64,000 nt of DNA from Bacteroidota bacterium. Its GTDB lineage: Bacteria > Bacteroidota > Ignavibacteria > Ignavibacteriales > Ignavibacteriaceae. Location: the NCBI GenBank assembly GCA_022564295.1, contig JADFLR010000016.1:1-64000 (forward strand). Direction: 5' to 3'. Made by a program: the position numbers and the translations under genes. Positions 33,495 through 49,469 of this stretch are shown here, piece by piece (position 1 is the stretch's first letter; every line of letters starts with the position of its first letter). The notes below the pieces were generated by a model, which saw nothing but the letters and a program-made list of their open reading frames with translations, made no database searches and was not told the origin of the DNA.

Positions 33495-33498
33495 AGGA

Positions 33499-34317: not shown

Positions 34318-34325
34318 ATTTAAAA

Positions 34326-34344
34326 TGTGAGTTCTTATCTCACA
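34326..34344. promoter_or_regulatory. Probable AbiEi operator 1
   Basis: A 19-bp palindrome, TGTGAGTTCTTATCTCACA, ending 9 nt from the abiEi start codon. It shares half-sites TGTGAG/CTCACA with operator 2, 77 bp away. Position over the start region would block transcription or initiation. Confidence 0.8.
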
Positions 34345-34402
34345 ATACACCTATAAAACATTAAAATCAATTATTTTAAAAAATGATGCTCTATATTAGG
34401 AA

Positions 34403-34421
34403 TGTGAGTTTATAGCTCACA
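34403..34421. promoter_or_regulatory. Probable AbiEi operator 2
   Basis: A 19-bp palindrome, TGTGAGTTTATAGCTCACA, extendable to 23 bp (AATGTGAG...CTCACATT). The same half-sites and spacer length as operator 1 occur. Two inverted repeats upstream of abiEi, bound cooperatively, are known from characterised AbiE systems. The palindrome also lies between abiEi and the end of the upstream defence operon. Confidence 0.8.
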
Positions 34422-34509
34422 TTTATTATATAATACATCATAAAAATAATACTATTATTGAAAAGAGTCAAGTGTGGTTAGTATTTATGTGGAAGTTGGA
34501 TGTAAACTT

Positions 34510-34706
34510 TCATTTTGTGTTAATATTTTCTTCTACAATTTTTATACGGGCTGGTTTACAGCCAATAGATTTAAGAAATGATTTTAATTCATCGTTTATT
34601 TTCTTATCCTGTTTAGGATCGGAATTGTAAATGCCTAAGCCTTCAAAGACTACTATATAAACTTCTAAACGCTTTTTATATTGTTCTTTGGTTTCAATTT
34701 AGACAT
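34510..34706 (-). pseudogene. Small gene (about 65 codons) broken by a one-base frameshift
   Basis: After AAAGAAG a start ATG at 34706 reads MSK, then goes out of frame. With one extra A in the run TCTAAATTG it would continue as IETKEQYKKRLEVYIVVFEG ... LKSFLKSIGCKPARIKI and stop at TGA 34510. The 62-codon second part has no start of its own. I do not recognise the family. The last 20 codons recur at 40204-40259 after the DprA-like gene, so this is a repeated unit. Last gene of the defence operon by position and direction. Confidence 0.5.
34531..34587 (-). repeat. Direct repeat, left copy (codes for KSFLKSIGCKPARIKI)
   Basis: The segment containing CGGGCTGGTTTACAG is about 80 percent identical over some 55 nt to 40204-40259 in the same orientation. 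Both encode the peptide LKSFLK-x-I-x-CKPARIKI on the minus strand. The two copies bound the block from the membrane protein through HsdR to the DprA-like gene end. Confidence 0.65.
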
Positions 34707-34734
34707 TCTTCTTTTAAATTATTATTTATTTACT

Positions 34735-35166
34735 TTATGAATTAATTAGATTTTCAACATAACGCTGGAATTTATTATAAGAATTAAACTCACTATTTAT
34801 TTTCGGCCATTCTCTTTTTACTAAATTACTCTGAAGTGTTCTCTCCATTTCATCCTTCCAAATATTCCATACCTTTATTGATAATTGGCCTGATTCCCTC
34901 AAATAATATTCTTCTGAACAGAGGTTAATATATTTCAGAACAGCTATTGTCAGTTTTTCACTTTCTAGGGGTAATGCTTTTTCATAATTAAAGCGATAAA
35001 ATCTTGCATCTGCTGGAAAGCTATCCATTATACTTTCGTAGCGCTGGGTGTATTGCAAAAATACTTGGATGTTACTTTGTTTTTTGTATGTATAAAACCC
35101 CCAAAATAAACTGGCTGCAGCAATCAATATTGAAATAGGTATAAACCAAAACTCTAAAAACTCCAT
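34735..35166 (-). CDS. Small membrane protein of the defence operon, unknown function
   Basis: A 143-residue protein with one N-terminal membrane helix (FWFIPISILIAAASLFWGFYTY, residues 6-27), a short basic stretch (KKQ), then a soluble, charged helical domain (YTQRYESIMDSFPADARFYRFN; LKYINLCSEEYYLRESGQLSIKVW). This one-helix plus cytoplasmic domain layout is common among uncharacterised proteins near phage-defence genes. No catalytic motif is seen. It follows the nuclease remnant by 64 nt on the same strand. Confidence 0.6.
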   Translation of the reverse strand: MEFLEFWFIPISILIAAASLFWGFYTYKKQSNIQVFLQYTQRYESIMDSFPADARFYRFNYEKALPLESEKLTIAVLKYINLCSEEYYLRESGQLSIKVWNIWKDEMERTLQSNLVKREWPKINSEFNSYNKFQRYVENLINS

Positions 35167-35230
35167 TTATTCTCCGTAATTTATTAATATGTTTTTAATA
35201 GTAAACTTTTTAATGAAAAAATTATTTCTC

Positions 35231-35365
35231 TCACAATTTTACACCAGCTAACAAATTAGGATATTTCTCAAGTAAATCCTGGAATACTTCTTCTGTAACG
35301 TATTCTTCCTGATTCATTTCAATTAAAGATTTATCTTTCTGCAATAAGAAAATTCCGGTGCTCAC
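35231..35365 (-). pseudogene. N-terminal remnant of a nuclease-like protein (44 aa)
   Basis: GTG at 35365, preceded by GAGG, opens a 44-codon frame with FLLQKDKSLIEMNQEEY and DLLEKYPNLLAG. The pattern of a short beta hairpin followed by LLxxYPxLLAG is the usual beginning of a family of about 350-residue uncharacterised nuclease-like proteins. The frame ends after 44 codons with TGA, and nothing more of the family follows. Probably a truncated gene left in the operon; the family name is from memory of its opening motif only. Confidence 0.45.
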
Positions 35366-35413
35366 TTTTTACCTCATAATTTATTTTAACAATATTTACC
35401 AATATTTTTTCAA

Positions 35414-36358
35414 TTAGTTCAATTCCCTAATCTTAGGCTTAAAGTATTTTGTAAAGTTCTCTAAATAATCTTTAAACCACTGATGCTGATTTGCCCAATC
35501 ACTTTTATCATTAAAATTTACTTTTTTTAGTAACTGTACCTGACTTTCTTTAGCATCAGGCAAAGGACGCCAATTTAAGTTAGCATCAATTTTTACTTTA
35601 GCATCTTCTTCATATTTTTCTTTTAGTTCTTCGAAGAATCTTTGTTTATCTGAACCTTTAATAACAAAATTAATTCCGATAAAATTATCTCTACTATTCA
35701 CATATGCTGCAAGTAGAAAATTAGTTTTGCCGATTGCAAAATTGGTCCAATGTTGAGGAGATGGCTTTTGAGATTTAATAATGCTCCCAGACGATTCTAA
35801 ATAGTCTTTTAGTTTTTGCCAATACTCCTGCTGAAGTAACTTTGTTTTAGAAACCTCACCACTTGTAACAGTTTTTCTTACAGTTTTTGACCAATCATTT
35901 GGTTTGGACACTATGTTAAACATAGGGGCTGGTGGGCTATCACCTATTCGATATGCCTCTATTTCTATTCCAAAGAAGTTTATACCTTCTTCAGTTATAC
36001 GATTGAGCCAGTCAAGAGTTGCGCTATGTTCTTCTGTAAAGTTCTTTGAAATCCAAATAATAGTAACTGCATCAAGCCCGGCTGCATAGGTCATAAGTTG
36101 ACCTAAGTGATTGTGGTCAGTTCTTTCTAATTGATTTTCTATTAATACATAGTGATCATTCAAAGTATCCTTGCAAAGAATATCGGCGCGGAATGGACCG
36201 ACATTCTTTTCCTGGTCTTGGACTTCTAATTCAATATTTAATGTTTCACCCAGCAGAGAAATATTTTCTTCCTTAGCAAGCCAAGGTGTGAAATCGGTTG
36301 CTTCACCATTCCATATTTCTCTCAAATCAACTTTTTTTAGTTTACCTAACTTTACCAT
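35414..36358 (-). CDS. DUF4268 protein with PD-(D/E)XK-like nuclease motif
   Basis: A 314-residue protein. The N-terminal half carries FRADILCKDTLNDHYVLIENQLERTDHNHLGQLMTYAAG (about 55-95), a PD-(D/E)XK-like core in which the E-x-K is replaced by E-N-Q. Proteins of this sort often act as nucleases in or beside restriction systems. The C-terminal half matches DUF4268 (NFAIGKTNFLLAAYVNSRDNFIGINFVI ... LNWRPLPDAKESQVQL ... WANQHQWFKDYLENFTKYF). It starts 24 nt after hsdR, on the same strand. Likely a partner or extra nuclease of the HsdR block. Confidence 0.8.
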   Translation of the reverse strand: MVKLGKLKKVDLREIWNGEATDFTPWLAKEENISLLGETLNIELEVQDQEKNVGPFRADILCKDTLNDHYVLIENQLERTDHNHLGQLMTYAAGLDAVTIIWISKNFTEEHSATLDWLNRITEEGINFFGIEIEAYRIGDSPPAPMFNIVSKPNDWSKTVRKTVTSGEVSKTKLLQQEYWQKLKDYLESSGSIIKSQKPSPQHWTNFAIGKTNFLLAAYVNSRDNFIGINFVIKGSDKQRFFEELKEKYEEDAKVKIDANLNWRPLPDAKESQVQLLKKVNFNDKSDWANQHQWFKDYLENFTKYFKPKIRELN

Positions 36359-36382
36359 TATTATTCACCTTATATTTATAAT

Positions 36383-39300
36383 TTATTTTCCATCCGCTAC
36401 CCAATCATCAGCAATAAGTTCTGCTTGTTTTAAAACTGTATCTATTGCTTTTTTCTGCTTGTCTGGTGGATAACCGTATTTAGTAAGAGTTCTTTTAACC
36501 AATACCATAAGTTTTGCTCTTGCACTTTCACGAATTGTCCAATCTATTGTTGCATTCCTTTTTACTTTTTCTGCAATTTCCCTTGCAATAGTTTTTAGTG
36601 TATCGTCTCCGAGAACTTTCACTGCACTATCATTCGTTCCGAGTGCATTATAAAACGCTACTTCATCCTGGGATAAACCTAACCTTTCTCCTTCTTTATC
36701 CGACTCTTTTATTTCATTCGCAATTTTGATCAGTTCTTCAATAACCTGTGCTGTAGTTAGTAGATTATTTTGATATTTCTTGATAGCACTTTCTAACATC
36801 TCCAAAAATCTTTTACTTTTTACGAGATTTGTTTTCAGGCGTGATTTAATTTCATTGTTCAATATTTTTCTTAGTAGTTCAATAGCAAGATTCTTATGAC
36901 TCATCCCCTGAACTTCTAACAGAAATTCATCAGAGAGGATTGAAATCTCAGGTTTTTCAACACCTGCAGCTTCAAAAATATCAATCACTTTATCCGAGCT
37001 AATTGCTTCATCTACAATCTGCTTAATAGCTGTATCAATTTCATAAGAAGATTTACCAGTACCTTCGCCCTCAAATTTTACTAAGCGTGATTTTACTGCC
37101 TGGAAGAAAGCAACTTCTTCTTTTATCTCAATTGCTCTTTCCTGAGGCATTGATAATACGAATGCCTGGCTTAGTATTGTAACTTCGCGAATGAATCTGG
37201 ACTTCCCATCCTGTAAGCCTAAAATATGTTCTTCTGCCTGCAGAATAATAGATAGCTTTTCGTGTGGATCGCCTGTGAAGAAACGATTGTAATTAAACTT
37301 GTACTGACCTTTATAATATGCATCAGGTTCTTCTACTAAAATATTTTTTTGCGTTTTGCTCTCTTCATTAAACATCTGCTGGACTATTTCAAGTTTTTCC
37401 AGCATTACCTCTACAGCTTGCTCAATATCCTTTGTCGGATCACCCTTTCCACCGGAGTCTGAATAAAATGAGAGAGCTTTCTTCAAATCTGAGGCGATGC
37501 CAAGATAATCAACAACCAGCCCGCCAGGTTTATCTTTGAATACGCGATTCACTCTTGCGATTGCCTGCATAAGATTGTGTCCGCGCATCGGTTTATCTAT
37601 GTACATTGTGTGGAGGCAAGGAACATCGAAACCAGTTAACCACATATCAATAACAATAACCATTTTTAATGGGTCGGCAGGATCTCTCATTCTGTCAGCC
37701 AAATCTCTTCGCTGCTGTTTTGTAGTATGCTGTTTTGCCATTACAGGACCATCAGCACTGGAAGCGGTCATTACAACTTTTATTTCTCCTTTAGCCAGAT
37801 CTTCATTATGCCATCCAGGTTTTAATTTAACTATTTCATTAAACAGGTCGACAGCAATTCTCCGGCTCATGGCCACAATCATTGCTTTGCCATCAAAAAA
37901 TTCTTGCCTCTTTTCAAAATGATTGACAATATCCCTTGCTAAGTTTCCTATCCTGTGCTTGTTACCTACAATTGCCTCTAACTTAGACCATTTGGCTTTG
38001 GCTTTTTGTTTCTCAGTTATCTTTTCATCCTGCTCAAGTTCTTCATCGAACTCTTCAATTAATCGTTTGCCTTCTTCATCAAGATTAACTTTTGCCAGGC
38101 GGCTTTCATAGTAAATTTTAACAGTTGAACCATCAGCAACAGATTTAGCTATATCATAAATATCAACATAGTCTCCAAAAACCTGGGGAGTGTTGATATC
38201 TGTTCTTTCAATAGGTGTTCCTGTGAAACCAATGTAAGTTGCGTTTGGTAATGCATCACGCATATACTTTGCAAATCCATAAGCAATACGCTGACCAATC
38301 ACTTCTTTAGTTTCTTTATCAATAACATCCCTCATAACTGCTTCAAATCCGTATTGCGTTCTATGTGCTTCATCGGCAATTACGATTATATTTCTTCGAT
38401 CAGAAAGCTGATCATATTCTTCTCGTCCTAATTCAGGCAAGAACTTCTGGATGGTTGTAAAGACAATTCCACCGCTTGCAACTTTTAATAAATCCTTTAA
38501 GTCTTCTCTGCTTTCAGCTTGAATAGGTTCCTGTCTTAATAATTGCATTGATGCTGCAAATGTGTCAAACAATTGATCATCGAGATCGTTACGGTCCGTT
38601 ATTAAAACGATGGTAGGATTCTCCATCTCCGGAGCGGTAATAAGCTTACCAGAATAAAAAACCATACTTAAGCTCTTGCCCGAGCCCTGTGTATGCCAAA
38701 CAACCCCACCGCGTTTATCACCAGTTATGCCGGATGCTTTTATACTTGATAGGACTGCTTTGTTTGTTGCGTAGTACTGATGATATGCAGCTAATATCTT
38801 TTCAGTATTTATTTGGGTGATTCCTGTTTTAGCATCTTCCTTTTTAGTTTTTTGAAAGACAATAAAACTCCTGGTTATATCAAGCAGCGTTTTGGGATTT
38901 AACATTCCTTTTATCAGAGTTTCCAACTGCGGAATAAACCGTGATGCTTCTTTATCACCTTCAGCACTTTTCCACGCCATAAATCTTTTGAAACCTGCAG
39001 AAACACTTCCTGCTTTACATTCAAGTCCATCCGAGATTACACATATTGCGTTGTATGTAAATAGACCGGGTATTGTTGCTTTATATGTTTGGATCTGTTT
39101 GTAAGCTGATACAACTGTTGCATTTTCATCAGTAGCGTTTTTTAATTCGATCACAACGAGAGGAATACCATTAACAAAGAGTAAAATATCGGGGCGTTTA
39201 TTCTGATTATTCTCAATGATTGTGAATTGGTTAACAGCAAGAAATTGATTGTTCTCTATGTTATCAAAATCTATCAACGCAACCTCATAACTTCGCTCGT

Positions 39301-39616
39301 AGCCATCCTGCTGATATGGTATTTTTACTTTCTCAATTATATACTGATGGAATGTTTCATTGTTATGAAGAAGATCAGTAGAATAGATGCGAAGTACTTT
39401 TTGTATTGCCTGTTCTTGTGCTTCATTGGGAATGTGAGGATTGATGATTGAAACTGCTTTACGTAAACGATCTGTTAAGATGATTTGTTCAAAGCTTTCT
39501 CTTTCCTGCTGCTCTGCGCCTGGTGCAATTGCTAAGCCGTGGAGATATTCCCAGCCCAAAGTATTAAGCTGCTCGATTGCAAAGTATTCTATTTTATCTT
39601 CGGTAATGGGTTTCAT
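36383..39616 (-). CDS. hsdR: Type I restriction endonuclease subunit R (HsdR)
   Basis: A 1077-residue motor-nuclease, full length. The N-terminal PD-(D/E)XK nuclease has [19 protein letters not shown] (about 142-160). The SF2 helicase has [16 protein letters not shown] (Walker A, about 310), [12 protein letters not shown] (DEAH, about 417), IGFTGTPIE and [21 protein letters not shown]. All catalytic residues are intact. HsdR normally acts with HsdM2HsdS, neither of which is in the window. The preceding small gene overlaps its start by 4 nt and a DUF4268 gene follows, so it is part of a multi-gene operon, perhaps used with the separate methylase at 42276 or an HsdMS elsewhere. Confidence 0.95.
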
Positions 39617-40038
39617 AATGTAAAAAAATAATCTTCAATCTCATTATAGTCAGCTTTCCCTTCTAATCTCAGTCTTTTCCAGTATGCAGTGGCGGCTTCT
39701 TCTCTCTTTTCTTCTTCACAATCCTTAAATTTATTACTGCTTGAGCGTATCTGTATATTTTCACTTCGTTTGATTTCTAAGATTATTGCTTCTGGAATTC
39801 CCTTACTCATATATCTATCTAAAAAATAATGATTGATTGAATCTATTTTCAAATAATTAATTCTTTTCAATAAAACTATTTCAAAAAAATCTAATTGTTC
39901 TTCAACTTTATCTGAAATGCGAACTAAAAGACAATCTTTATCCTCCCCACAATGATATTGAGTATTATTGAAAATTTGATACTGAAATTTCCTTTTAATT
40001 CCATCTTTATCAGTTGCATAAAATGATTTCAAATACAA
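39613..40038 (-). CDS. Hypothetical protein coupled to hsdR
   Basis: A 141-residue protein of unknown family; its last 4 nt overlap the hsdR start. N-terminal half is beta-rich ([24 protein letters not shown]), and a charged helical C-terminus contains [32 protein letters not shown]. The [25 protein letters not shown] segment is mixed. No signal peptide or membrane helix. Coupling suggests it is made in fixed ratio with HsdR, e.g. as an accessory or inhibitor. Unrecognised. Confidence 0.6.
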
Positions 40039-40063
40039 ATACCTTAATCATTTGTTAGTAATT

Positions 40064-40204
40064 TTATATAAAATCGATCATACTTTTTGAATTATTTTTT
40101 ATCTGACCTCTTTGCTCATCAGCTTCGGTAACATCGCTATTTATACTATTACCGTAAACTGTGGTTTTTCTAATAGTGCTGGAAAAAGAAAAGTTATTTT
40201 TCAT
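40064..40204 (-). CDS. Possible 46-aa protein between DprA-like and hsdR-coupled genes
   Basis: ATG 40204 opens 46 codons ending in TAA at 40064. Sequence is hydrophilic (NSDVTEADEQRGQIKNNSKS), with no domain. No strong ribosome site is visible. It fills most of the only sizeable gap (204 nt) in the operon and starts just at the end of the KPARIKI repeat. Confidence 0.3.
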   Translation of the reverse strand: MKNNFSFSSTIRKTTVYGNSINSDVTEADEQRGQIKNNSKSMIDFI

Positions 40205-40259
40205 TTTTAATTTTTATTCGGGCTGGTTTACAGACAATTGTTTTAAGGAATGATTTTAA
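40204..40259 (-). repeat. Direct repeat, right copy (codes for KSFLKTIVCKPARIKI)
   Basis: Partner of 34531-34587: the shared core is CGGGCTGGTTTACAG with TTTTAAG(G/A)AATGATTTTAA behind it. Here the copy overlaps the last codons of the DprA-like gene in another frame, so the repeat has been fused to that gene. It is probably the tail of a lost copy of the small gene at 34510. Confidence 0.6.
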
Positions 40260-40731
40260 GATTGAAATTAAATAACTCATTAGTATTGTTTAATTTATTT
40301 TTATAAAGATCATTTAATTTCTCAATCTGTCCGCCCTTAGATACGCAGGCTATGAATAATTCATCAGCTAACTCTATTATTTTCTTATTTCTGATCACTG
40401 ATGTATGTGAAGTAACTCGTTTGACTTCTGAAGGAAATGGTGAAATTACTAACAGCCTTTTTTGACCAAGTGCCACCTTAATTTCTGGCTCCCATATTTG
40501 CTTTAATCCTCTTGCTAAGACTAAAATCAGAGGTTGGACCCCCTTCAGAAGAAAATGAAATACATCTTTTTCTATTTTTGAATGAAATCCAGAGATTATG
40601 CAAACACCTTTGTCTCTTTTCGCAATTGCCCAATCGTATGTTTTAAGTATGATGTTAGCAGGGACTTTACGAGAACAGAGAAAGCCAATTTTATAGTTTT
40701 TCAGTATTTCTTTATTTCCCAGGTATTCCAT
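40243..40731 (-). CDS. DprA/LOG-like Rossmann protein of the defence operon
   Basis: A 162-residue protein with a short DprA-like nucleotide-binding fold: NYKIGFLCSRKVPANIILKTYDWA, then KRDKGVCIISGFHSKIEKDVFHFLLKG, QPLILVLARGLKQ and LLVISPFPSEVKRVT. The order of strand-glycine turns (LCSRKVP, SGFHSKIE, RGL) resembles the SMF/DprA core, but it lacks the flanking SAM and winged-helix parts of true DprA (about 280-380 aa). Short DprA-like proteins recur near restriction genes and may bind foreign single-stranded DNA or nucleotides. The last codons are altered by the KPARIKI repeat. Confidence 0.7.
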   Translation of the reverse strand: MEYLGNKEILKNYKIGFLCSRKVPANIILKTYDWAIAKRDKGVCIISGFHSKIEKDVFHFLLKGVQPLILVLARGLKQIWEPEIKVALGQKRLLVISPFPSEVKRVTSHTSVIRNKKIIELADELFIACVSKGGQIEKLNDLYKNKLNNTNELFNFNLKIIP

Positions 40732-40741
40732 TTATTAAATA

Positions 40742-41182
40742 TCATATATTGCTGTTTATAGCATTCAATATCTTTAGTTTTAATTCCTCCGGATATTCTG
40801 GTTCGTTAATTAAAGATGTAATTACTTCTAATAATAATTCTTTGCTAATTTTACCAGCAGCTAAATGATAGCTGATATTTTCCATTTCCTGAATAAATTT
40901 TTTTGTGATGAAAACGTATCCATTAAATAGAAGGAACTGAGCACCCAGAGATATAGCAATTCGTTTATTCCCATCTTCAAAACAATGGAATTTATTTGCA
41001 CTGAAAACAAGATGATTTAATTTTTCTTCAAAAGTTGGATAGTAGTCGTCGTTTTGAATATGATGAAGTACGCTATCTAATTTTCCAGAATCGAGTATGC
41101 CATTTGAACCACCACCACTAACTTGAACAGTTAGTTTATGTATCTTGATTGCTTGGTCAATAGTGATATAAATAATACTCAT
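40742..41182 (-). CDS. doc: Death-on-curing (Doc/Fic) toxin
   Basis: A 146-residue Fic-fold toxin. The active loop HCFEDGNKRIA (about 66-76) has the His and DGNKR of the H-x-F-x-D-G-N-K-R signature; N-terminus YITIDQAIKIHKLTV and SGGGSNGILDSGKLDSVL are typical of Doc. Doc kinases phosphorylate EF-Tu, other Fic proteins AMPylate targets; the target here is unknown. It overlaps its upstream partner by 4 nt, as toxin-antitoxin pairs do, but the partner is much larger than Phd. Confidence 0.9.
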   Translation of the reverse strand: MSIIYITIDQAIKIHKLTVQVSGGGSNGILDSGKLDSVLHHIQNDDYYPTFEEKLNHLVFSANKFHCFEDGNKRIAISLGAQFLLFNGYVFITKKFIQEMENISYHLAAGKISKELLLEVITSLINEPEYPEELKLKILNAINSNI

Positions 41183-42198
41183 TCTCTATCCTTAAGGCGT
41201 TTAAAGATTTCTTTCATTTCTTCAAGACGCTCTTCAAGGTCTTTGCTTTTTTCACCAAGGAATCTGTCAAAATCTTTGGGTGGGATAGCTGAGATATATT
41301 CTTTTAGTCTGATATGCAAGGCATCTCTGAAACCAAGATCACGTGAAGCCATTTTTGTACGAACATCCTGAAGTTGAGGAACCCAAAGTCTTTGATTTTC
41401 AAAAGCAGAATATAGTTTGTCTACTTCGATTGGAGTTAATTTCTTACCGTCTCTTTCAAATTCATTTTTAAGCTTATCCGCAAATCCAGCTTCAAAGCTT
41501 GAAATAATCAGAAGTACTTCGCTATACATCGTATCCCGGACATTTTCCTTTGAATGGAGACTTAATATTTGCCTGTATTCTTGAGCATTTTCTTTGAATA
41601 TACTTTGGTAAATTTTATTGGTGTAGATAGGATATTTGGCTTTACCCATATCCACATAATCACGAAGGGCATCAGTAAACTCTTTTCTATAATCCTCACC
41701 ACGCAAGTAATTAACTATAAAGTCTTCATCACGTTGGTTGATATATTTTGTGCCGCCACCGGTTTTTTTATTTACTGTATCAATCACAATATCGAGAATA
41801 ACGCTGCGTAGGATTTTTGCCCGCACACTTTCAGTTAAAAGCATAGCTAAATTCAAGTAGGAACGGAAGTTAAATACCCCAAGCTGAGGTGCTTTGTTAA
41901 CGGCATCAATGTCGTTAACATTGGTGGATTTTACTACTAACTTAAACTCCTGTAAGTGTTTACCGCGTAAGACCTCATAACCGTTTTGAGATAATTCTTC
42001 CGAAAATTTCTCTAAATAACGGTCAATTGTTCTTGGATCAACTTCAAAGAAAGCGGACACCTGGCTTTTGATAAATTTATATTCACCAGCAAATAAAATA
42101 CCTTCTAAACCAATCGCAATCCTTATTTCTTCCAAAGCATATTGGTTATTTAGGATATTTTGTCTGTCTATTTTTGAGTTAGTTAAGTCTTTAGCCAT
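41179..42198 (-). CDS. Doc-linked DNA-binding protein (RhuM-like)
   Basis: A 339-residue protein overlapping doc by 4 nt. Residues about 45-70 (YKFIKSQVSAFFEVDPRTIDRYLEKFSEELSQNGYEVLRG) form a helix-turn-helix-like DNA-binding unit, as in RhuM-type proteins found beside restriction and Fic genes. The middle (SYLNLAMLLTESVRAKILRSVILDIVIDTVNKKTGGGTKYINQRDEDFIVNYLRGEDYRKEF) is shared by proteins that pair with Doc. The C-terminus is charged, likely coiled-coil (EERLEEMKEIFKRLKDRE). It is plausibly the antitoxin or regulator of doc; this is inference from context. Confidence 0.7.
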   Translation of the reverse strand: MAKDLTNSKIDRQNILNNQYALEEIRIAIGLEGILFAGEYKFIKSQVSAFFEVDPRTIDRYLEKFSEELSQNGYEVLRGKHLQEFKLVVKSTNVNDIDAVNKAPQLGVFNFRSYLNLAMLLTESVRAKILRSVILDIVIDTVNKKTGGGTKYINQRDEDFIVNYLRGEDYRKEFTDALRDYVDMGKAKYPIYTNKIYQSIFKENAQEYRQILSLHSKENVRDTMYSEVLLIISSFEAGFADKLKNEFERDGKKLTPIEVDKLYSAFENQRLWVPQLQDVRTKMASRDLGFRDALHIRLKEYISAIPPKDFDRFLGEKSKDLEERLEEMKEIFKRLKDRE

Positions 42199-42275
42199 AA
42201 AAAATATTATTTGATATTAATAAATGTTTAGATTTTCTTTAAAGAACGAATTAAAATCAGGTTTAAAATCTGGGT

Positions 42276-45200
42276 TCATTTTTTATCCTCCAACTCTTTC
42301 CCCATTCTATATTTAATATCATAGTTAATTATGAAATCTAACTCTTCTTCTGTGAAACCGTAATGTTGTGCTAATATCTTATCAACTCGATCCATAGTTT
42401 GTTTTGAATATTCAGGCCAAAACTGATCATATATTACTGTGCCATTTTTCTTTTCATACCTAACACGTTTTTTATTTTTATAAAGATCTAAAACTAATTC
42501 GAGAGAAATAGTTTTTAGATTAAGAACTGCTTTTTTGTCTAATATTTTGATATCTATAGGGAAATAGATCACATCATCTTTAGCAACATCACGTCCATTA
42601 GAACGTATTATATACCAAAAATAGAAGAGAGAGCTGGATAATATCGAAACAAAAGTTTCTTTAGTTTCATTGAGAATATTTAATCTTTTATAATGTGTTG
42701 AAATGGTAGGCTGCTCATTTCCCCGTTTAAAATATGGAGCTTTAGGTAAACATTTTACCCAATAATGGACTACATCGTGATACCATATTTTTGATTTGCC
42801 ATATCTTTCATACTCTAATAAGATCGGTTTTTGTTTTTTTATCTTATTATAAATGTTTAATGCTAAGAAAGAACCAATTTTTGCTACCTTATAATTATTT
42901 GAAGGTATTTTTTGATAACAAATTCTGTTTGTAAATAAACTCTCTCTCTCATTACCTGTATCAGTAAACCTTAGAAAATCAGTTGAGAAAACAAGATTAA
43001 TTTTATAGCGATGACTAATAAAGATAGTGGTATTTTGTTGAACTCCTGAAAATAAAGTTCCAGGATGAGTATCCCCACTAAAATTTGCAAACCATACTCT
43101 TCCTGTTTCTTGAATAAGATGAGATATTGTGGACATTTTAGAATTTCCAATAACGCTTATAGGAATAATCATAGAAATTCTACCAATGTTAGTCTTTAAT
43201 AATTTGTAACTTTTTTCAACACAAAAACCATATAAATTTTTGGAAGTTAAAGTCTCATAATTTTTAAGTTCATAATCAATATTATTATTATAAGCTACAT
43301 AAGGTGGATTACCAATAATAACATCAAAACCACCAGTCTCAATTATTTCATGAAACTCAGCAAACCAGTGGAAAGGTTGGTGAGAAGAAAGCCAGTCTTC
43401 AAATTCTTTTTTGTTTTTTCTGGATCTACCGTAATCATTACCAAGATAATCGTTAAGAGTCTCATTTAGATTTTTTAATCGTTCGTTAAGATCATCTTTC
43501 GCTTGCTTAAATTCAGTGTGGTCTGTTTCATCTTCAAGTTGTATCCCTTTATATCGTTTGAAAGCTTTCGCAACCACTCCTAATTCATCGTAAACTTTTT
43601 TTGTGTCTGCATTAAGATCGAGACTCCAGGTTAATCCCTTATCTAATTCTTCTTTTGTAGCAAATCCAATCAATGTATTTCCTGTTCTGATATTGAAATC
43701 AATATCCGGTAATGGTTCAAGATGTTCAAAGTCATCAACTTCAGCAACAAGCTTTAAGAAGAGACGTAACTTTGCAATTTCCACAGCTTCGTTCATTATA
43801 TCCACACCATAAAGGTTGTTGAGTATTATGGATTTATAGATATAATATTTTTCGTTGGGATGCTGTTCAATTATATCTAAAACTTTTCTAAATTGTGGGA
43901 ATTTTTTACCACCCTTTGCATTATCTTCTTCAATAAATCCTCTCATTCTAAGCAGACAACCCTCATAAAGCGGCTCAAGAATATTAAGTGCTGCGAAAAG
44001 AAAAGCACCGGAACCGCAGGTGGGATCGAGTACAGTAATTTTAGTTATTGATTTATGGAATGCATTTATAAAATCGGAACCCTCGTACTGTTCAACAGCA
44101 TCCTGTGCAAACTGGCGTATATTAAGGTTGTAAGTAATAAAGTCGTTAATTTCTTTAACCTCTCCATTTTCAATTTTGTTTTTTATATCAAAGTAACGGT
44201 TACGTCTTTCAACAACCTCGCGCCAGATTTCCGTGGATAATGCATATTCAGGTGGAGCGTAAGTGTTCCAGGATTTTCTACGTTCTAATAAATTTGGTTT
44301 TGTTGTATCCACACCCTTTTCGATATCAGGAGGGAGTACACGAATTGTCTCTTGAGATTGCTTCGCTTCTCGTCTCGCATCTGGCTCGCCGGAGCGGGCG
44401 CTCGCAATGACCTTGCCATTGTCTTCGTAAATGCCGTGTTTTACTGCATCGAAAATGTAGCGGTCTGGATTATCACGAAGCATTTTCCACAAGCTGCTTT
44501 CCTCTTTAAAAGCATTAGCACAATCTTTTTTAACCTTATCGAACAGAAATGGAATGATTGTATTCTTCGTAATGTATTCGGTTATATCTTCTTTGGTGTA
44601 GTAGGCACCCATTGCGGCGCGATCATTAATGTATTTTTCAAATATGTAACCAATAACATCCGGGTTAATATCACGTCCGGTTGCGGTAATTTTTGTATCA
44701 AGATGCCAATTGTATTCATCAAAAAATTTGAAGATTCGTTTAAAAGCTTTGTCTTCTATTTCAATCTTTCTGTAATCCTTTTCAAGCTGGTGTACATCAA
44801 ATAAACCACCGTTAAGGTAGGGAACCCTGCCAAGTTCTTTAGTTATAGTTTTGGAGCGTTCAGATTCTGGTGACCCAAGTCCTTTATGGAACAGAACAAG
44901 AAGAAAGTTACGATAGAAAGAAAAGAATTTATCCTTACCTTTTCGTACCTGCGTTTCTTTAAGCTTATCAAAAAGGTAATGAATATTATTATCGAGAAAT
45001 CCTTTTTTCTGAATGAAGTAAATAAACATCAAGCGATTAAGCATAAGGGATGCATACCATTCTTTATTTATTTTATCTTCAATACCTTTTATGAAACCAA
45101 GGAATGCTTTATGGTGCTCTTTAAACTCATCATAAAATCTCTTTGTAACTTTTTCAGCATTGGTATTGAACTGCTCAACAACATTTGATTTTACATCAAG

Positions 45201-45638
45201 CAGAGAGATCTTTTCTTCTTCATCAATAGAGATAAACAGTTTGCTTAGCTTTTGAAAAAGTAATTCGGGATACTGAGTAGAGAAGTAAGGTGTTTCTCTA
45301 ATAGTTATTGGCTTGTTAGGTTCTCTTAAAGCGAGCTGCCAGATTTGATGATGATTATCTGCGTCAGTATAGATAAGAAGGTGCTCGAAATATAGTTTGG
45401 AAATTTTATTCTCAATCTTTTTGCGCGTGCTGTAATCGGGAATTTTACCATTACTATTCGGTGAACAGGAGAAAACAACAAAGTCTCTCTTTTCAGCTAT
45501 TGCATCAAGAGAATAGGTATCTTCTTTTACAGCGATGCTCTCTGTTTTTTCAATTCTATCCCAACCAAGTTCGTTAAATAACTCTTTAAGTTTGAACTCC
45601 TTGATTAGCTGAGTAAAGCGAACTTTATCAAGATTCAT
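42276..45638 (-). CDS. Eco57I-like N6-adenine DNA methyltransferase
   Basis: A 1120-residue methylase. SAM motif I DPTCGSGAFLF (about 540) and the catalytic NPPY in DVIIGNPPYVAYN (about 773) are intact. The C-terminal 300 residues form a TaqI-like target-recognition region (VWFANFSGDTHPGTLFSGVQ; KRGNEQPTISTHYKRL). The N-terminal 350 residues are helical with no clear nuclease motif. The methylase carries its own specificity region, so no HsdS is needed. An in-frame GC-rich repeat at 44354-44411 adds about 20 residues (near 410-429). It overlaps the helicase gene by 11 nt. Likely the self-marking arm of a PLD-helicase restriction pair. Confidence 0.88.
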   Translation of the reverse strand: MNLDKVRFTQLIKEFKLKELFNELGWDRIEKTESIAVKEDTYSLDAIAEKRDFVVFSCSPNSNGKIPDYSTRKKIENKISKLYFEHLLIYTDADNHHQIWQLALREPNKPITIRETPYFSTQYPELLFQKLSKLFISIDEEEKISLLDVKSNVVEQFNTNAEKVTKRFYDEFKEHHKAFLGFIKGIEDKINKEWYASLMLNRLMFIYFIQKKGFLDNNIHYLFDKLKETQVRKGKDKFFSFYRNFLLVLFHKGLGSPESERSKTITKELGRVPYLNGGLFDVHQLEKDYRKIEIEDKAFKRIFKFFDEYNWHLDTKITATGRDINPDVIGYIFEKYINDRAAMGAYYTKEDITEYITKNTIIPFLFDKVKKDCANAFKEESSLWKMLRDNPDRYIFDAVKHGIYEDNGKVIASARSGEPDARREAKQSQETIRVLPPDIEKGVDTTKPNLLERRKSWNTYAPPEYALSTEIWREVVERRNRYFDIKNKIENGEVKEINDFITYNLNIRQFAQDAVEQYEGSDFINAFHKSITKITVLDPTCGSGAFLFAALNILEPLYEGCLLRMRGFIEEDNAKGGKKFPQFRKVLDIIEQHPNEKYYIYKSIILNNLYGVDIMNEAVEIAKLRLFLKLVAEVDDFEHLEPLPDIDFNIRTGNTLIGFATKEELDKGLTWSLDLNADTKKVYDELGVVAKAFKRYKGIQLEDETDHTEFKQAKDDLNERLKNLNETLNDYLGNDYGRSRKNKKEFEDWLSSHQPFHWFAEFHEIIETGGFDVIIGNPPYVAYNNNIDYELKNYETLTSKNLYGFCVEKSYKLLKTNIGRISMIIPISVIGNSKMSTISHLIQETGRVWFANFSGDTHPGTLFSGVQQNTTIFISHRYKINLVFSTDFLRFTDTGNERESLFTNRICYQKIPSNNYKVAKIGSFLALNIYNKIKKQKPILLEYERYGKSKIWYHDVVHYWVKCLPKAPYFKRGNEQPTISTHYKRLNILNETKETFVSILSSSLFYFWYIIRSNGRDVAKDDVIYFPIDIKILDKKAVLNLKTISLELVLDLYKNKKRVRYEKKNGTVIYDQFWPEYSKQTMDRVDKILAQHYGFTEEELDFIINYDIKYRMGKELEDKK
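44354..44411 (-). repeat. GTCATTGCGAGC...AAGCAATCTC palindromic element inside a coding gene
   Basis: On the minus strand the element reads GTCATTGCGAGCGCCCG ... GAAGCGAAGCAATCTC, a dispersed repeat type found in many bacterial genomes, usually between genes. Here it is inside the methylase gene in frame, encoding VIASARSGEPDARREAKQS. Its GC content is far above the flanks. The insert sits between the helical N-terminal part and the motif I region, probably in a loop. Confidence 0.85.
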
Positions 45639-48600
45639 TTTTAAGCCCCATTGTGCAAATAATTTGTGGTTCTTTATATTTTATTTCATCTTCACTAACA
45701 ATACAAAGTTTATCATCATCACTTAATGAAACTGCCAGTTCAGCCAAATGTGAATCATCTATTCCCGCCTTCAACTGTCTATTAAAGGTTTCTTTGGCAA
45801 CCTCTTTCAACGGATATCTGTAAATATCCTCAATTGTTTTTTTAAGATTATCATTGGCAAATAGTAAGTCCTTATTTTCATTATAATATCTGTCCAGCCG
45901 CATGTAAACACGATACCTGGCACTTGTTTTTTTTCCCAGTTGACCACCAATCCGGGATTCTGAAATATTTATCTGATCAAGTCCATCGCTAACAAGTTTA
46001 TGATGATTTGATAGACGCATTAGTGGTTTTTCTTCCGGGTTGCACTCAGCTTTTTTTAATATTATGTATTGAGACTGACTTAACAGTTCTCCATTTGAGC
46101 TAACTAAGGCAAGAACATCGTTATCATCGTAAGTCTTTGTATAGACGATTACACTTTCCGGTTCATTATCAGATTTATTTAGTGCTTTAGTTGAGTAAAC
46201 TACATTAGGTAAATCGGGAATTACTTTTTGCAAAGAAGGATTCATATCAAGAGCATTTTTCCATATTTGATACGCGTAAGATGCTAAATCAACTTCCGAG
46301 TCATCTTCGTCATCTAATATTCCTGCTTTCTCATTATATAGATCAGCAATGTTTATTGGATCACCTTCAAAGAATGTTTCATCAGAACCAACAACTTCAG
46401 CATTTTCTTCAATGCGCTGTCCCAAACGCTGGCGAAGCCTAATGATATTTTCGATACCATCTTCCGGAAGAAATGAGTAGCAAAGAATTTTATCTGATTT
46501 TTGACCAATTCTATCAACTCGACCCGCTCGTTGAATAAGACGAATAATTGCCCATGGAAGATCATAGTTAAGTACAATATGACAATCCTGCAGGTTCTGC
46601 CCTTCACTTAAAACATCAGTACTAATAAGAACGCGAATTTCTTTTTCTGTTCCTTTTATGTTTTCTTTTTCATTACTTACCGGGCTAAAGCGATATGCAT
46701 ATTTGGTAGGATCATCCGAATCACCTGTTACACAAGCAATATTATCAATCTTTCGGTTTTTAAGATCATTAAAAAGATAATAAGCAGTATCAGCGAATTG
46801 CGTAAAGATTAATATTTTTTCTTTTGGATGCTTCTTAGTACAAACTTCAAACAATGCATTCAGCTGCCGGTCTTTAGCTGGTGTCCAGTCTTTTCCAAGA
46901 TTTAATTTTTCCATAAGATTAACAGCATCGGAAGTTAACTGTTCCTTAAGATTATTATCAAAAAAATCAGATCTTATCCAGTCAAATCTTCTTTTTTGCG
47001 TTGTTTCAAACAGCTTATATACCTCCCCTGCAAGCCTATAGTAAGATTCTGCTTCAAACATTATATGGTTATTATTATCCGTCTGTTCAGCATCTTTATC
47101 CTCCAAAAATTCATCAAGTGTATTTGCTTCTTGTCCACCAACTGGAATCGGCAAATTATTATCGATTGCATATATAAAAATATAATTCCTCAAGATGTGG
47201 CGGCTAAGAGAAAGTAAAAATGAATGTCCACTGCTTTCCAGCCGCTTAAATAAATTCGTTCTTGCAAAACCCATTAGTCTTTTCCCAGCTCGGGACAGAT
47301 TTTGCATAAGGACTTCTTCACTCTTTGTAGGATTAAATGGTAACGGATCCAATAAATAATTAGCTAATCCATAGCGCGGTAAATTTAGTTGATTAAGCGA
47401 AGTTACAACTTCAGCGGTATAAAGTTTTGCATACTGATCTTTCGAGTCTTTTGGATTAAAATCGTATTCTACTTTTTTAGCATGTCGATCAGGAAAATAA
47501 GATCTTCTCCCGTCAGAAAATGTAAGATATTTGCGTTTCTTTATTTCATCAGTTTCAGCATAATTCTGTTTGATAAAACTTCTTGTTCTTCTAACAAGGT
47601 AAAGTCTCATTAATTCCCGCCAGTCATCAGTATAATCACTTTTCTCAAATGCCAGAATTGAACGTTCCGAAGCTTGGTATTGTGCAATAAACTCAATTCG
47701 ACCTCCTATGTCTTTAATAAAATTCTCTGGGGAAATTCCAAGATCCTGATGATCATCAATAAAAAGACGAAGTTGGTTAGATAAATCTGTATAAGACTTA
47801 TTATAAGGTGTTGCAGTTAACAGAATAACTTTGCTTGCATTAAGTCCAATATATTCTTTAATGGCTCTATATCTTTTACCTTCACGATTTCTAAGGTTAT
47901 GACTTTCGTCAATTATAACAAGCCGATATCTGCGCATTTCAGGCAGTTGCGTTTGTGCCATTGAGATTGAAATAACTTTTGCTCGGAGCCGGTACTTGTG
48001 AACATAATCTTCCCACATCCTTACTATATTCTTAGGGCACATGATAAGAGTCTCAAGATAAAAATCGTCTTCAAATATTTTTGCAAGAGCACTGGCAATA
48101 ATAGTTTTACCAAGACCAACAACATCGCCAATAACCACACCGTCTCGTTTATTTAAATGATGCGCGGCAATTAATACTGCTTTATGTTGAAAATCGAAAA
48201 GTTCTTCCTTAAAGATTTTTGGAATTCTAAATTCTGAAAGACCTGCCCTGGCTTCACGTGATAAATGATAAGCCATCTTAAGATAGATGTGATACGGTTG
48301 ATAGAGTTTATCAGCAGCCCAGGATGTATCAATTATTTCTGCAAGTTCATCAGAAATATCAAGACACCATCTATCATCCCATCTATCATCAAACCACTTT
48401 GATAATTTCTGTGCGGCATCCTGTTCTAAGACATCAACATTCAACTCTCCCTGTTTTACCAAACCCGCTAAAGTCAAATTACTACTTCCAACATATCCGA
48501 TCAGAGGAGTAATTTGATCATCTCTAAAAAGAAGATATAACTTAGCGTGAAGAGTATGCCGGAGGAATAATTTAACTGAAACCTTTTTCTTTTTTATCTG

Positions 48601-48960
48601 AGCAGATAATTTTCTTAGTCCTTGTTCATCAGCTTCTGTTGGAACTCCAATAGTCAATTGTTCTTTGAACTCTTGGGCCAATCGCTTTTTAATACTTAGC
48701 GCTTCTTTGTTATCGATACCATTTGCATCCACTTTTGAAAAGTAATCTTTTATTATATCAAGAGGTGGCTTTTGCATTCCAACTAATAATCGACAAAGCT
48801 TGTCATCTTTTCCTTCAAATCTTTCTATCTCATTTGCTACTTCTTTCCATCCCCTTAGGTTGAAGTAACCCACACAAAAATCAGAACGATAGGAAACTGA
48901 TAATGTATTGTTAAGACCAACTACTAAATTATTTTCAATGTTGTCATAAATTTTAGGCAT
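45628..48960 (-). CDS. PLD-nuclease/SNF2 helicase fusion protein
   Basis: A 1110-residue protein. Residues about 100-190 are a phospholipase D-type nuclease: HAKLYLLFRDDQITPLIGYVGSSNLT (HxK...GSxN, about 137-162). Residues about 260-520 are the first SNF2/SF2 lobe: DVVGLGKTIIASALAK (Walker A, about 278), VIIDESHNLRNREG (DESH, about 348) and LLTATPYNKS. The second lobe (about 700-850) has ILIFTQFADTAYYL, STDVLSEGQNLQDC and IIRLIQRAGRVDRIGQKSD. It is the first gene of the operon and overlaps the methylase. With the methylase it forms a likely two-gene restriction-like system. DISARM-type SNF2 helicases are similar in part, but DrmA, DrmB and DrmC are absent. Confidence 0.9.
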   Translation of the reverse strand: MPKIYDNIENNLVVGLNNTLSVSYRSDFCVGYFNLRGWKEVANEIERFEGKDDKLCRLLVGMQKPPLDIIKDYFSKVDANGIDNKEALSIKKRLAQEFKEQLTIGVPTEADEQGLRKLSAQIKKKKVSVKLFLRHTLHAKLYLLFRDDQITPLIGYVGSSNLTLAGLVKQGELNVDVLEQDAAQKLSKWFDDRWDDRWCLDISDELAEIIDTSWAADKLYQPYHIYLKMAYHLSREARAGLSEFRIPKIFKEELFDFQHKAVLIAAHHLNKRDGVVIGDVVGLGKTIIASALAKIFEDDFYLETLIMCPKNIVRMWEDYVHKYRLRAKVISISMAQTQLPEMRRYRLVIIDESHNLRNREGKRYRAIKEYIGLNASKVILLTATPYNKSYTDLSNQLRLFIDDHQDLGISPENFIKDIGGRIEFIAQYQASERSILAFEKSDYTDDWRELMRLYLVRRTRSFIKQNYAETDEIKKRKYLTFSDGRRSYFPDRHAKKVEYDFNPKDSKDQYAKLYTAEVVTSLNQLNLPRYGLANYLLDPLPFNPTKSEEVLMQNLSRAGKRLMGFARTNLFKRLESSGHSFLLSLSRHILRNYIFIYAIDNNLPIPVGGQEANTLDEFLEDKDAEQTDNNNHIMFEAESYYRLAGEVYKLFETTQKRRFDWIRSDFFDNNLKEQLTSDAVNLMEKLNLGKDWTPAKDRQLNALFEVCTKKHPKEKILIFTQFADTAYYLFNDLKNRKIDNIACVTGDSDDPTKYAYRFSPVSNEKENIKGTEKEIRVLISTDVLSEGQNLQDCHIVLNYDLPWAIIRLIQRAGRVDRIGQKSDKILCYSFLPEDGIENIIRLRQRLGQRIEENAEVVGSDETFFEGDPINIADLYNEKAGILDDEDDSEVDLASYAYQIWKNALDMNPSLQKVIPDLPNVVYSTKALNKSDNEPESVIVYTKTYDDNDVLALVSSNGELLSQSQYIILKKAECNPEEKPLMRLSNHHKLVSDGLDQINISESRIGGQLGKKTSARYRVYMRLDRYYNENKDLLFANDNLKKTIEDIYRYPLKEVAKETFNRQLKAGIDDSHLAELAVSLSDDDKLCIVSEDEIKYKEPQIICTMGLKNES

Positions 48961-49166: not shown

Positions 49167-49469
49167 TTATAATAAGTTTACTGCTGAGATTAAATCCTGT
49201 GTTTGTAAGTGGCTCTAAATTTGAGTTGTTTTAATATCCTCGTGTCCAGGTAATTCTTTAACCACAAATACTGATGCCCCTTTTTGAATTAACCTTGATG
49301 CAAAAGAATGTCTGAGAGTGTGAAAATGGATTCTCTCATTTAGTTTTGCCTTCCGTACTGTTCTTTTGAAATACTTGCTGGCGTAATCTTCATATAATTT
49401 TATACCCATTACTCGAGAGAATATATAATTATTATTATTTATGTTGTTTACCTTACTGAAGTTACTCAA
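49167..49469 (-). pseudogene. Tyrosine recombinase relic; catalytic Tyr position is an amber stop
   Basis: The frame reads YIFSRVMGIKLYEDYASKYFKRTVRKAKLNERIHFHTLRHSFASRL, then KELPGHEDIKTTQI, TAG at 49215-49217, then SHLQTQDLISAVNLL and TAA. HxLRH and GHEDIKTTQI-Y-SHL are the core-domain signatures of phage-type integrases. The TAG sits exactly where the catalytic Tyr codon (TAT/TAC) belongs. The N-terminal half, with the SAM-like domain and first catalytic Arg, is missing. This is a dead remnant at the right edge of the defence island. Confidence 0.88.

What the first reader, a model, noticed from the sequence alone, without database searches (positions are those of the whole stretch)
34510..48960. 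Composite minus-strand defence operon of unusual gene content
In transcription order: PLD-SNF2 helicase, Eco57I-like methylase (11-nt overlap), RhuM-like DNA-binding protein, Doc toxin (4-nt overlap), DprA-like protein, a 141-aa protein overlapping HsdR by 4 nt, HsdR, DUF4268 nuclease-like protein, a nuclease remnant, a membrane protein and a small frameshifted gene. Each part is known near defence loci. The combination of two motor-nucleases, one self-specific methylase and a Doc module in one run of nearly contiguous genes is not a system I can name. It could be one system with a built-in suicide module or two systems fused by insertion.
Basis: partly seen in the sequence, partly recalled or inferred. 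Interest (0 to 1): 0.85.

Follow-up and report, generated by a model that had tools for sequence, protein, structure and literature searches.

The report
Restriction system with swappable toxin slot
The gene run is two things side by side: a recurrent DNA-restriction gene set (helicase-nuclease, methylase and a DprA-like protein) that carries an exchangeable toxin pair, and next to it the leftover cutting subunit of an unrelated restriction system.

Summary
The genes are present as listed, but they are not one system. (1) Window 40243-48960: PLD-SNF2, Eco57I-type methylase, a Doc pair and a DprA-like protein. PLD-SNF2 with the methylase downstream recurs in 71 of 74 testable loci from many phyla; the DprA-like gene joins them in 38 of 49. 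The genes between methylase and DprA vary (DarT-DarG, PemK, PIN, Schlafen and others): a cargo slot, here holding the Doc pair, whose relatives also sit inside type III loci. (2) HsdR onward is a separate remnant: HsdM and HsdS are missing from locus and assembly; HsdR occurs in 0 of 80 PLD-SNF2 loci, PLD-SNF2 in 0 of 20 HsdR loci. Inferred mechanism: the methylase marks one adenine of an asymmetric site (a Synechocystis relative is, by elimination, M.Ssp6803IV, GAm6AGGC); PLD-SNF2 translocates from unmarked sites and cuts when two single-HKD chains meet; the DprA-like protein restrains or licenses it; Doc is a fallback. The 'RhuM-like' label is not supported. Ten paper searches turned up no description of the three-gene core.

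The parts
45628..48960 (-). PLD-SNF2: N-terminal PLD nuclease with a single HKD site fused to an SNF2-family motor; presumed restriction/translocation subunit
   Evidence: Pfam PLDc_2, SNF2-rel_dom, Helicase_C; PADLOC C3a139 'HKD+Snf2'; one HxK..GSxN motif in each of 80 sequences, window plus 79
42276..45638 (-). Eco57I-type adenine methylase, presumed modification and recognition subunit; residues 801-1100 hypervariable (probable target-recognition region)
   Evidence: Pfam Eco57I; PADLOC PDLC03628 925.9 bits; NPP[YFWI] and SAM motif in 51 of 51 sequences, conservation profile
41179..42198 (-). PDC-M59A partner of Doc (339 aa), presumed DNA-binding antitoxin or regulator; cargo
   Evidence: PADLOC PDC-M59A 8e-113; alignment A2 of 13; model weak, pLDDT 68.7, no PDB match at E<=0.001
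40742..41182 (-). Doc/Fic toxin with the motif HCFEDGNKR; cargo
   Evidence: Pfam Fic, TIGR01550; H66, F68, D70, G71, N72, K73, R74 invariant in 11 sequences
40243..40731 (-). DprA-like single SLOG-domain protein, recurrent third component
   Evidence: 38 of 49 loci; AF2 pLDDT 90.9; ShosA Z 16.0 (rmsd 2.6, 154 aligned), H. pylori DprA Z 15.0 (rmsd 2.9, 152 aligned)
40198..40259 (-). 62-bp direct repeat, copy 1 (85% to copy 2), overlaps the end of the DprA-like gene
34526..34587 (-). 62-bp direct repeat, copy 2, within the frameshifted small gene; the two copies bracket the HsdR block
39613..40038 (-). 141-aa protein of unknown function overlapping HsdR by 4 nt; adjacent remnant block, not the system
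   Evidence: no match in Pfam, PADLOC or NCBIfam at E<=0.01; match in 2 of 296 genomes, own included
36383..39616 (-). HsdR, open frame, orphan type I restriction subunit (adjacent remnant, not part of the system)
   Evidence: TIGR00348 633 bits; no HsdS domain and no HsdM match in the assembly (controls)
35414..36358 (-). DUF4268 protein (PADLOC PDC-S11), adjacent remnant block
34510..35365 (-).

Best explanation
Window 40243-48960 is one defence unit: an ATP-dependent restriction-modification system whose core is PLD-SNF2 + Eco57I-type methylase + DprA-like protein, with an exchangeable cargo slot that here holds a Doc pair. Working model: the methylase reads an asymmetric site and methylates one adenine on one strand; after each replication one daughter carries such a site wholly unmarked, so the nuclease must not fire at a single site. 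The SNF2 motor, loaded at unmarked sites, translocates, and cleavage occurs when two motors meet and their single-HKD PLD domains form a two-chain active site. The DprA-like SLOG protein binds single-stranded DNA or a nucleotide and restrains the helicase-nuclease (or licenses it on real targets). Doc and its partner are a fallback that harms the cell if the restriction arm is disabled, as PrrC does beside EcoprrI (recalled). HsdR and the genes after it are the remnant of a separate type I system. Shown here: gene content, co-occurrence, variability of the slot, motifs, DprA fold, absence of HsdM/HsdS. Inferred: defence function, collision cleavage, DprA brake, Doc trigger, one transcript.
For: Of 74 PLD-SNF2 loci with >=300 nt downstream, 71 have the methylase downstream on the same strand, 53 within 100 nt, the rest within 1.14 kb. 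DprA-like gene in 38 of 49 loci with >=1 kb after the methylase, 30 of 40 with >=5 kb, against 0 of 20 HsdR loci. In L049, L062 and L072 the three genes are consecutive with nothing between; in L021 the end of a methylase gene, then DprA, then PLD-SNF2, so the order is permuted yet they stay together. Slot contents in 19 of 20 cargo proteins scanned get a Pfam name: DarT, Macro, Virulence_RhuM, PemK, PIN, Schlafen AlbA_2, M78, AAA_21, DUF4276, HNH, FRG and others. Relatives of the Doc pair stand with DarG and DprA in L165 and between type III mod and res in L160, L161, L163. One HKD motif per chain in 80 of 80 sequences. Methylase residues 801-1100 hypervariable. Synechocystis pSYSX member: its methylase SGL_RS01600 (42.6% identical) is the only methylase besides the type I set in the plasmid's gene table, so by elimination M.Ssp6803IV, GAm6AGGC (PMC6604393, PMC7296061, passages). 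DprA fold; DprA homologues are described as antitoxins in shosTA, syrTA and rqlHI (PMC9122126, passage).
Against: DprA is not found in 11 of 49 loci (one of them, L058, has a tblastn match but no called ORF) nor in the two plasmid loci examined, so it is not universal. In L049 and L072 further same-strand ORFs follow DprA, so only L062 is a plain three-gene set. I saw no report of restriction activity of a PLD-SNF2 of this family. PADLOC models the Synechocystis methylase as a one-protein Type IIG enzyme; a degenerate nuclease in its N-terminal part cannot be excluded. The M.Ssp6803IV identification is by elimination; the primary paper is not held. Relatives of the Doc pair also occur without R-M genes that my queries recognised (L158, L159, L166, L167, L169) and near type I-like genes (L164; a shortened copy without Doc in L168), so its link to this system is loose. 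One of the 80 PLD-SNF2 loci, L064, has an HsdM match.
Confidence: 0.66

Rival explanations
1. One integrated system: HsdR is recruited as a second motor-nuclease to the Eco57I methylase, and DUF4268 and p141 are further subunits.
For: Same strand, close spacing, HsdR frame open with D..ELK, GSGKS and DEAH motifs.
Against: HsdR in 0 of 80 PLD-SNF2 loci; PLD-SNF2, methylase and DprA in 0 of 20 HsdR loci; of those 20, 19 have an HsdM and 20 an HsdS match, the query's own source L124 included; a 204-nt gap with a repeat copy between the halves.
Confidence: 0.05
2. The methylase is a self-sufficient Type IIG enzyme, and PLD-SNF2 and DprA are a separate, for example modification-dependent, nuclease system beside it.
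For: PADLOC 'Type IIG' model PDLC03628 matches at 925.9 bits. Some PLD-helicase enzymes such as SauUSI are modification-dependent (recalled).
Against: Constant pairing of the two genes, 71 of 74; no Pfam nuclease domain in the methylase; no conserved [DE]-x-K pair among the columns kept in >=85% of 51 sequences within residues 1-200, although a loose [ED]-x-K occurs somewhere in residues 41-110 of 31 of 51 unaligned sequences.
Confidence: 0.2
3. The DprA-like protein is an antitoxin for the cargo toxins (as ShosA in ShosTA), not part of the restriction core.
For: Fold match to ShosA, an antitoxin; PADLOC PsyrA matches. In L049 and L072 other same-strand ORFs follow DprA, so they may not be free of cargo (this raised the odds from 0.15 to 0.18).
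Against: In L062 the three genes stand alone on their strand apart from one ORF 1.9 kb further; some cargo brings its own presumed antitoxin, for example DarG beside DarT in L028-L030.
Confidence: 0.18

Closest known systems
Type III restriction-modification (Mod/Res), logic only
   Same: single-strand adenine methylation of an asymmetric site in the presumed Synechocystis member; an ATP-dependent motor; relatives of the Doc pair lie between mod and res in L160, L161, L163
   Different: methylase is Eco57I-type and the nuclease a PLD fused to SNF2; no type III model is among the 25 best PADLOC rows shown for either protein
DISARM class 1 (DrmD, DrmMI, DrmC) and ARMADA
   Same: SNF2-like helicase and large adenine methylase; DISARM also has a PLD nuclease (PMC12458937, passages)
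   Different: here PLD is fused to the helicase and no DrmA/DrmB or YprA-type gene was recognised in the run; DrmD model NF038317 132.4 bits against a cut-off of 610
NgoAVII / CglI and SauUSI PLD-helicase enzymes (recalled)
   Same: ATP-dependent restriction with PLD chemistry
   Different: other helicases and other modification partners (recalled); by sequence only the Pfam RE_NgoFVII PLD domain match was seen
CxC-ABC/DndE (Pbe) systems with an HKD nuclease fused to an SF2 helicase (PMC10853773, passages)
   Same: HKD nuclease fused to SF2 helicase; weak PbeA match of the Synechocystis protein (7.7e-13)
   Different: no ABC ATPase or DndE-like gene was recognised in the run
R-M loci with embedded toxins: RptR island with DarTG2 between hsdS and hsdR (PMC12255303, passages); DOC and RhuM toxins in R-M loci (PMC3710099, passages)
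   Same: toxin or toxin-antitoxin genes inside an R-M gene set
   Different: the passages seen do not describe PLD-SNF2 + Eco57I methylase + DprA
ShosTA / SyrTA (PsyrTA) / RqlHI
   Same: DprA-fold protein, described as antitoxin (PMC9122126, passage)
   Different: no PRTase or RecQ-like toxin gene recognised here; the restrained partner would be the SNF2-PLD enzyme

Membership tests
DISARM class 1 | DrmD-type SNF2 helicase over the NCBIfam cut-off | tested here: not met
   NF038317 132.4 bits, cut-off 610
DISARM class 1 | DrmA and DrmB in the locus | tested here: not met
   none of the 10 proteins scanned has DrmA or DrmB as its best PADLOC match; PLD-SNF2 itself has a weak DrmA match, 5.8e-14. 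Genes outside 32676-48960 were not scanned
Type IIG enzyme | nuclease and methylase in one chain | tested here: inconclusive
   methylase present and PADLOC IIG model matches; no Pfam nuclease domain; no conserved [DE]-x-K pair in residues 1-200 of 51 sequences
Type III R-M | Mod and Res family proteins | tested here: not met
   best PADLOC matches are C3a139 and REase_MTase_IIG; no type III model in the 25 best rows shown for each
Type I R-M (HsdR block) | HsdR | tested here: met
   TIGR00348 633 bits, cut-off 284.55
Type I R-M (HsdR block) | HsdM and HsdS partners | tested here: not met
   own genome: HsdM query 0 matches, while it matches in 4 of 4 relatives, one being its source; Methylase_S 0, control 9 of 14. 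N6_Mtase domain rings 7 times in the genome, best 66 bits in a 979-aa frame, none close to this HsdM
Phd-Doc toxin-antitoxin | Doc motif (recalled as HxFxDxNKR) | tested here: met
   HCFEDGNKR; motif residues invariant in 11 sequences; TIGR01550 44.3 bits, cut-off 38.65
Phd-Doc toxin-antitoxin | Phd antitoxin | tested here: not met
   the partner is a 339-aa PDC-M59A protein without Pfam or NCBIfam match
Virulence_RhuM | PF13310 domain | tested here: not met
   no match at E<=0.01; hhalign probability 1.1% against a PF13310 protein
DprA | SLOG/DprA Rossmann domain | tested here: met
   Foldseek best H. pylori DprA E 1.8e-8; VIA Z 15.0 to it and 16.0 to ShosA; Pfam 27.2 bits, under the 29.6 cut-off
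DprA | RecA loading in transformation | not testable with these tools
   needs biochemistry
PsyrTA / ShosTA | cognate toxin (RecQ-like helicase or PRTase; recalled and PMC9122126) | tested here: not met
   no such gene recognised among the 10 proteins scanned

The most novel reading that the evidence does not exclude
PLD-SNF2 + Eco57I-type methylase + DprA-like protein is a distinct, unnamed class of ATP-dependent restriction system found across many bacterial phyla, in which a DprA/SLOG protein gates a collision-activated half-site nuclease and a dedicated slot exchanges toxin-antitoxin and other modules as a second line of defence; enzymes filed as Type IIG, such as the Synechocystis plasmid methylase, are its modification subunits.
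Probability: 0.45. Interest if true: 0.7.

Novelty: new variant of a known kind. Interest (0 to 1): 0.55.

Why it matters
If right, a protein annotated only as 'helicase-related' and a methylase filed as Type IIG become one restriction system, and DprA-like proteins gain a role as subunits of a restriction enzyme. It also makes a general question testable: do R-M loci of different types share portable toxin modules as tripwires? A culturable member, on plasmid pSYSX of Synechocystis 6803 with a probable known methylation motif, makes the core idea testable now.

Tried and rejected
One-system reading with HsdR: rejected by co-occurrence. dN/dS of HsdR against four relatives: no dS could be computed (returned -1, taken as saturated), no use. 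Empty-site comparison: the flanking M1-peptidase and ABC-transporter genes have no close counterpart in 20 family members at the thresholds used, so no junction to compare. p141: one partial match besides the own genome in 296 genomes. Small frameshifted gene: in the held loci no convincing relative except the repeat copy. Promoter/terminator scan: 73 promoter-like sites against 70.3 expected, 10 terminator-like against 8.4, uninformative. Fold of the 339-aa Doc partner: weak model, best PDB row DdrC at E 1.8e-3, no claim built on it. RhuM label: rejected. Phage records: no PLD-SNF2 match at E<=1e-50 in 50,697 records. PDB by sequence: only generic helicases for PLD-SNF2, nothing at E<=0.001 for the methylase and nothing at E<=0.1 for the Doc partner. 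What PADLOC's name 'C3a139' refers to I did not find.

Literature: ten searches listed no paper whose title, abstract start or the passages I opened describe the three-gene core; the library lacks most subscription papers, and I read no paper in full. Passages by term search: PMC12839542, PMC12458937, PMC10853773, PMC12255303, PMC3710099, PMC6604393, PMC6560206, PMC7296061, PMC9122126. PrrC/EcoprrI, SauUSI, NgoAVII/CglI, collision by type III and ISP enzymes, and the RecQ-like nature of the RqlHI and SyrTA toxins are recalled.

Rows left out of counts: the DprA fraction uses 49 of 80 loci (those with >=1 kb after the methylase), the adjacency count 74 of 80 (>=300 nt after PLD-SNF2); one search returned the best 80 of 324 relatives. 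Against my reading: DprA absent in 11 of 49 and in two plasmid loci; HsdM match in L064; relatives of the Doc pair near type I-like genes in L164, a shortened one in L168, and without recognised R-M genes in five loci; same-strand ORFs after DprA in L049 and L072.

Full report
WHAT IS THERE. In transcription order on the minus strand: PLD-SNF2 (45628-48960), Eco57I-type methylase (42276-45638, 11-nt overlap), a 339-aa protein (41179-42198), Doc (40742-41182, 4-nt overlap), DprA-like (40243-40731), a 204-nt gap, p141 (39613-40038), HsdR (36383-39616, 4-nt overlap), DUF4268 (35414-36358), and fragments down to 34510. Pfam, PADLOC and NCBIfam support the labels PLD + SNF2, Eco57I, Fic/Doc, DprA (Pfam just under its cut-off), HsdR and DUF4268, but not 'RhuM-like': PADLOC has this protein as PDC-M59A, with Doc as PDC-M59B. 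Next door lie AbiEi and AbiEii and a truncated integrase-like ORF (by eye).

TWO HALVES THAT DO NOT BELONG TOGETHER. A scan of genome contigs (one genome for each of 84,980 species) with PLD-SNF2 returned 80 loci, the best of 324 relatives, 55-69% identical, with titles from Bacteroidetes, Ignavibacteria, Nitrospira, Omnitrophota, Acidobacteria, Phycisphaerae, Proteobacteria, Clostridia, Spirochaetia, Chloroflexi and others. HsdR was found in 0 of these 80 (40 of them reach 5 kb beyond the methylase), and PLD-SNF2, methylase, DprA, the Doc pair and DUF4268 in 0 of 20 loci around HsdR relatives (52-87% identical), at tblastn E<=1e-5. Those 20 look like ordinary type I systems: an HsdM match in 19 (the other, L130, ends at a contig edge) and an HsdS match in 20, the query's source locus L124 included. 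The window has neither. The assembly (4.07 Mb, 59 contigs) has no match to that HsdM, a query that matches in 4 of 4 relatives, its source among them, and no Methylase_S domain (control 9 of 14 named genomes). Seven N6_Mtase domain hits exist elsewhere in the genome, none close to this HsdM. HsdR therefore looks like an orphan left from a type I locus. A 62-bp, 85% direct repeat (40198-40259 and 34526-34587) brackets the block, which fits a separate insertion or deletion history but does not prove it.

THE RECURRENT UNIT. Of 74 PLD-SNF2 loci with at least 300 nt downstream, 71 have the methylase downstream on the same strand, 53 within 100 nt and the rest within 1.14 kb. The three without are L021, L036 and L050. 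Of the 49 loci with at least 1 kb after the methylase, 38 have the DprA-like gene (30 of 40 with at least 5 kb); L058, counted as a miss, has a tblastn match without a called ORF. In L049, L062 and L072 the three genes are consecutive; L062 is the plainest case, while more same-strand ORFs follow DprA in the other two. In L021 the end of a methylase gene precedes DprA, which precedes PLD-SNF2, so the three stay together when their order changes. In 296 genomes of the window's phylum the family is patchy: besides the own genome I read six full-length relatives (49-67%) and two in pieces (41-51%) from the rows; the 251 genomes that ring there at E<=0.001 are mostly weaker helicase matches.

THE SLOT. 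Between methylase and DprA lie changing genes: 64 same-strand ORFs of 80 aa or more. Of 20 representatives scanned, 19 got a Pfam name: DarT, Macro, Virulence_RhuM, PemK, PIN, Schlafen AlbA_2, DUF4062, M78, HTH, AAA_21, DUF4276, HNH, YhcG, PLD, FRG and others. Some loci have ORFs between PLD-SNF2 and the methylase instead or as well (L012, L013, L018, L040). The window's Doc pair is one more filling. In L165 (same class) a DarG, relatives of the pair (57% and 55%) and DprA (61%) are consecutive, and that genome's PLD-SNF2 and methylase end 321 nt from the edge of another contig (L175), so they are probably one locus split in assembly. Relatives of the pair lie between type III mod and res in L160, L161 and L163, and the 339-aa partner follows a type III mod in L170 at a contig edge. 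In L164 the pair is followed at a distance by a weak type I-like REase, and in L168 a shortened partner, without a Doc match, by type I-like genes. In L158, L159, L166, L167 and L169 the pair has no R-M neighbour that my queries recognised. The pair is thus portable cargo of more than one kind of R-M locus; its place here, inside the unit, is what ties it to PLD-SNF2.

HOW IT PROBABLY WORKS. Shown: each of 80 PLD-SNF2 sequences (window plus 79) has exactly one HxK..GSxN motif; a looser pattern finds a second site in 2 of 80. G[LIVM]GKT is found in 76 and DE[SAT]H in 74 of 80. The methylase has NPP[YFWI] and the SAM motif in 51 of 51, and a part (801-1100) with mean identity 0.21-0.30 against 0.34-0.62 in 1-800, as expected for target recognition. 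No [DE]-x-K pair is conserved in its first 200 residues, though loose ones occur in 31 of 51 single sequences. A named member lies on pSYSX of Synechocystis 6803: PLD-SNF2 (49.5%), a small gene and a VapC gene, then the methylase (42.6%), no DprA match. pSYSX carries M.Ssp6803IV and V (PMC6604393, passage); V is the type I set and IV is GAm6AGGC (PMC7296061, passages). As the plasmid's gene table, which PLSDB says can be incomplete, lists only one other methylase besides the type I set, SGL_RS01600 should be M.Ssp6803IV. PADLOC's 'Type IIG' model PDLC03628 matches that protein end to end at 2661.8 bits, so the model was evidently made from it.

Inferred: marking one strand of an asymmetric site leaves unmarked sites after each replication, so a single site must not trigger cutting. 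A motor that must meet another motor, each bringing half of a PLD active site, solves this, as collision does in type III and type ISP enzymes (recalled). The DprA-like protein is a lone SLOG domain: model pLDDT 90.9; Foldseek puts H. pylori DprA first (E 1.8e-8), VIA gives ShosA Z 16.0 (rmsd 2.6, 154 aligned), H. pylori DprA Z 15.0 (2.9, 152), next group, a Moco carrier protein, Z 11.1 (2.4, 118). DprA homologues are described as antitoxins in shosTA, syrTA and rqlHI (PMC9122126, passage), the last two with RecQ-like helicases (recalled), so a brake on the SNF2-PLD enzyme is my first choice and an ssDNA sensor the second. Doc as a fallback when restriction fails follows the PrrC idea, proposed also for DOC toxins in R-M loci (PMC3710099, passages); DarTG2 inside a type I locus is documented (PMC12255303, passages).

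KNOWN OR NEW. Embedded toxins in R-M loci are known, and PLD-helicase and Eco57I-type parts are known singly. The trio with DprA was not described in any listing or passage that ten searches brought up. I therefore call it a new variant of a known kind. DprA is not found in 11 of 49 loci nor in the two plasmid loci looked at, and I know of no tested activity of this PLD-SNF2 family.

Noticed in passing
window 32676-34350, minus strand: AbiEi/AbiEii type IV toxin-antitoxin pair directly beyond the run (PADLOC E 3e-79 and 1e-84).
   Followed up: partly
window 49215-49469, minus strand: C-terminal fragment that looks like a tyrosine integrase (HTLRHSFASRL by eye, early stop) upstream of PLD-SNF2: a possible island edge.
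   Followed up: no
L123, L124, L134, L135: HsdR frames of 1231-1337 aa whose matches to the 1077-aa window HsdR are broken near residues 216-298, close to Walker A: insertions that could be inteins.
   Followed up: no
window 30096-30149 and 51920-51973: 55-bp, 85% direct repeat on either side of the whole defence region.
   Followed up: no
window 42217-42279, minus strand: 20-codon ORF whose ATG overlaps the methylase stop (ATGA), before the Doc pair; may be the start of a displaced gene (by eye).
   Followed up: no
L160, L161, L163, L170: Relatives of PADLOC candidate pair PDC-M59 are embedded in type III R-M loci (mod and res seen in the first three, mod only in L170).
   Followed up: yes
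L181 36258-38691 (pSYSX of Synechocystis 6803): Its type I locus also carries genes between S and R: a Fic gene and a HigB-type toxin with a regulator.
   Followed up: no
L178 17291-19545 (pSYSX): ThiF / E2 / multiubiquitin gene set on the other strand shortly after the PLD-SNF2 locus.
   Followed up: no
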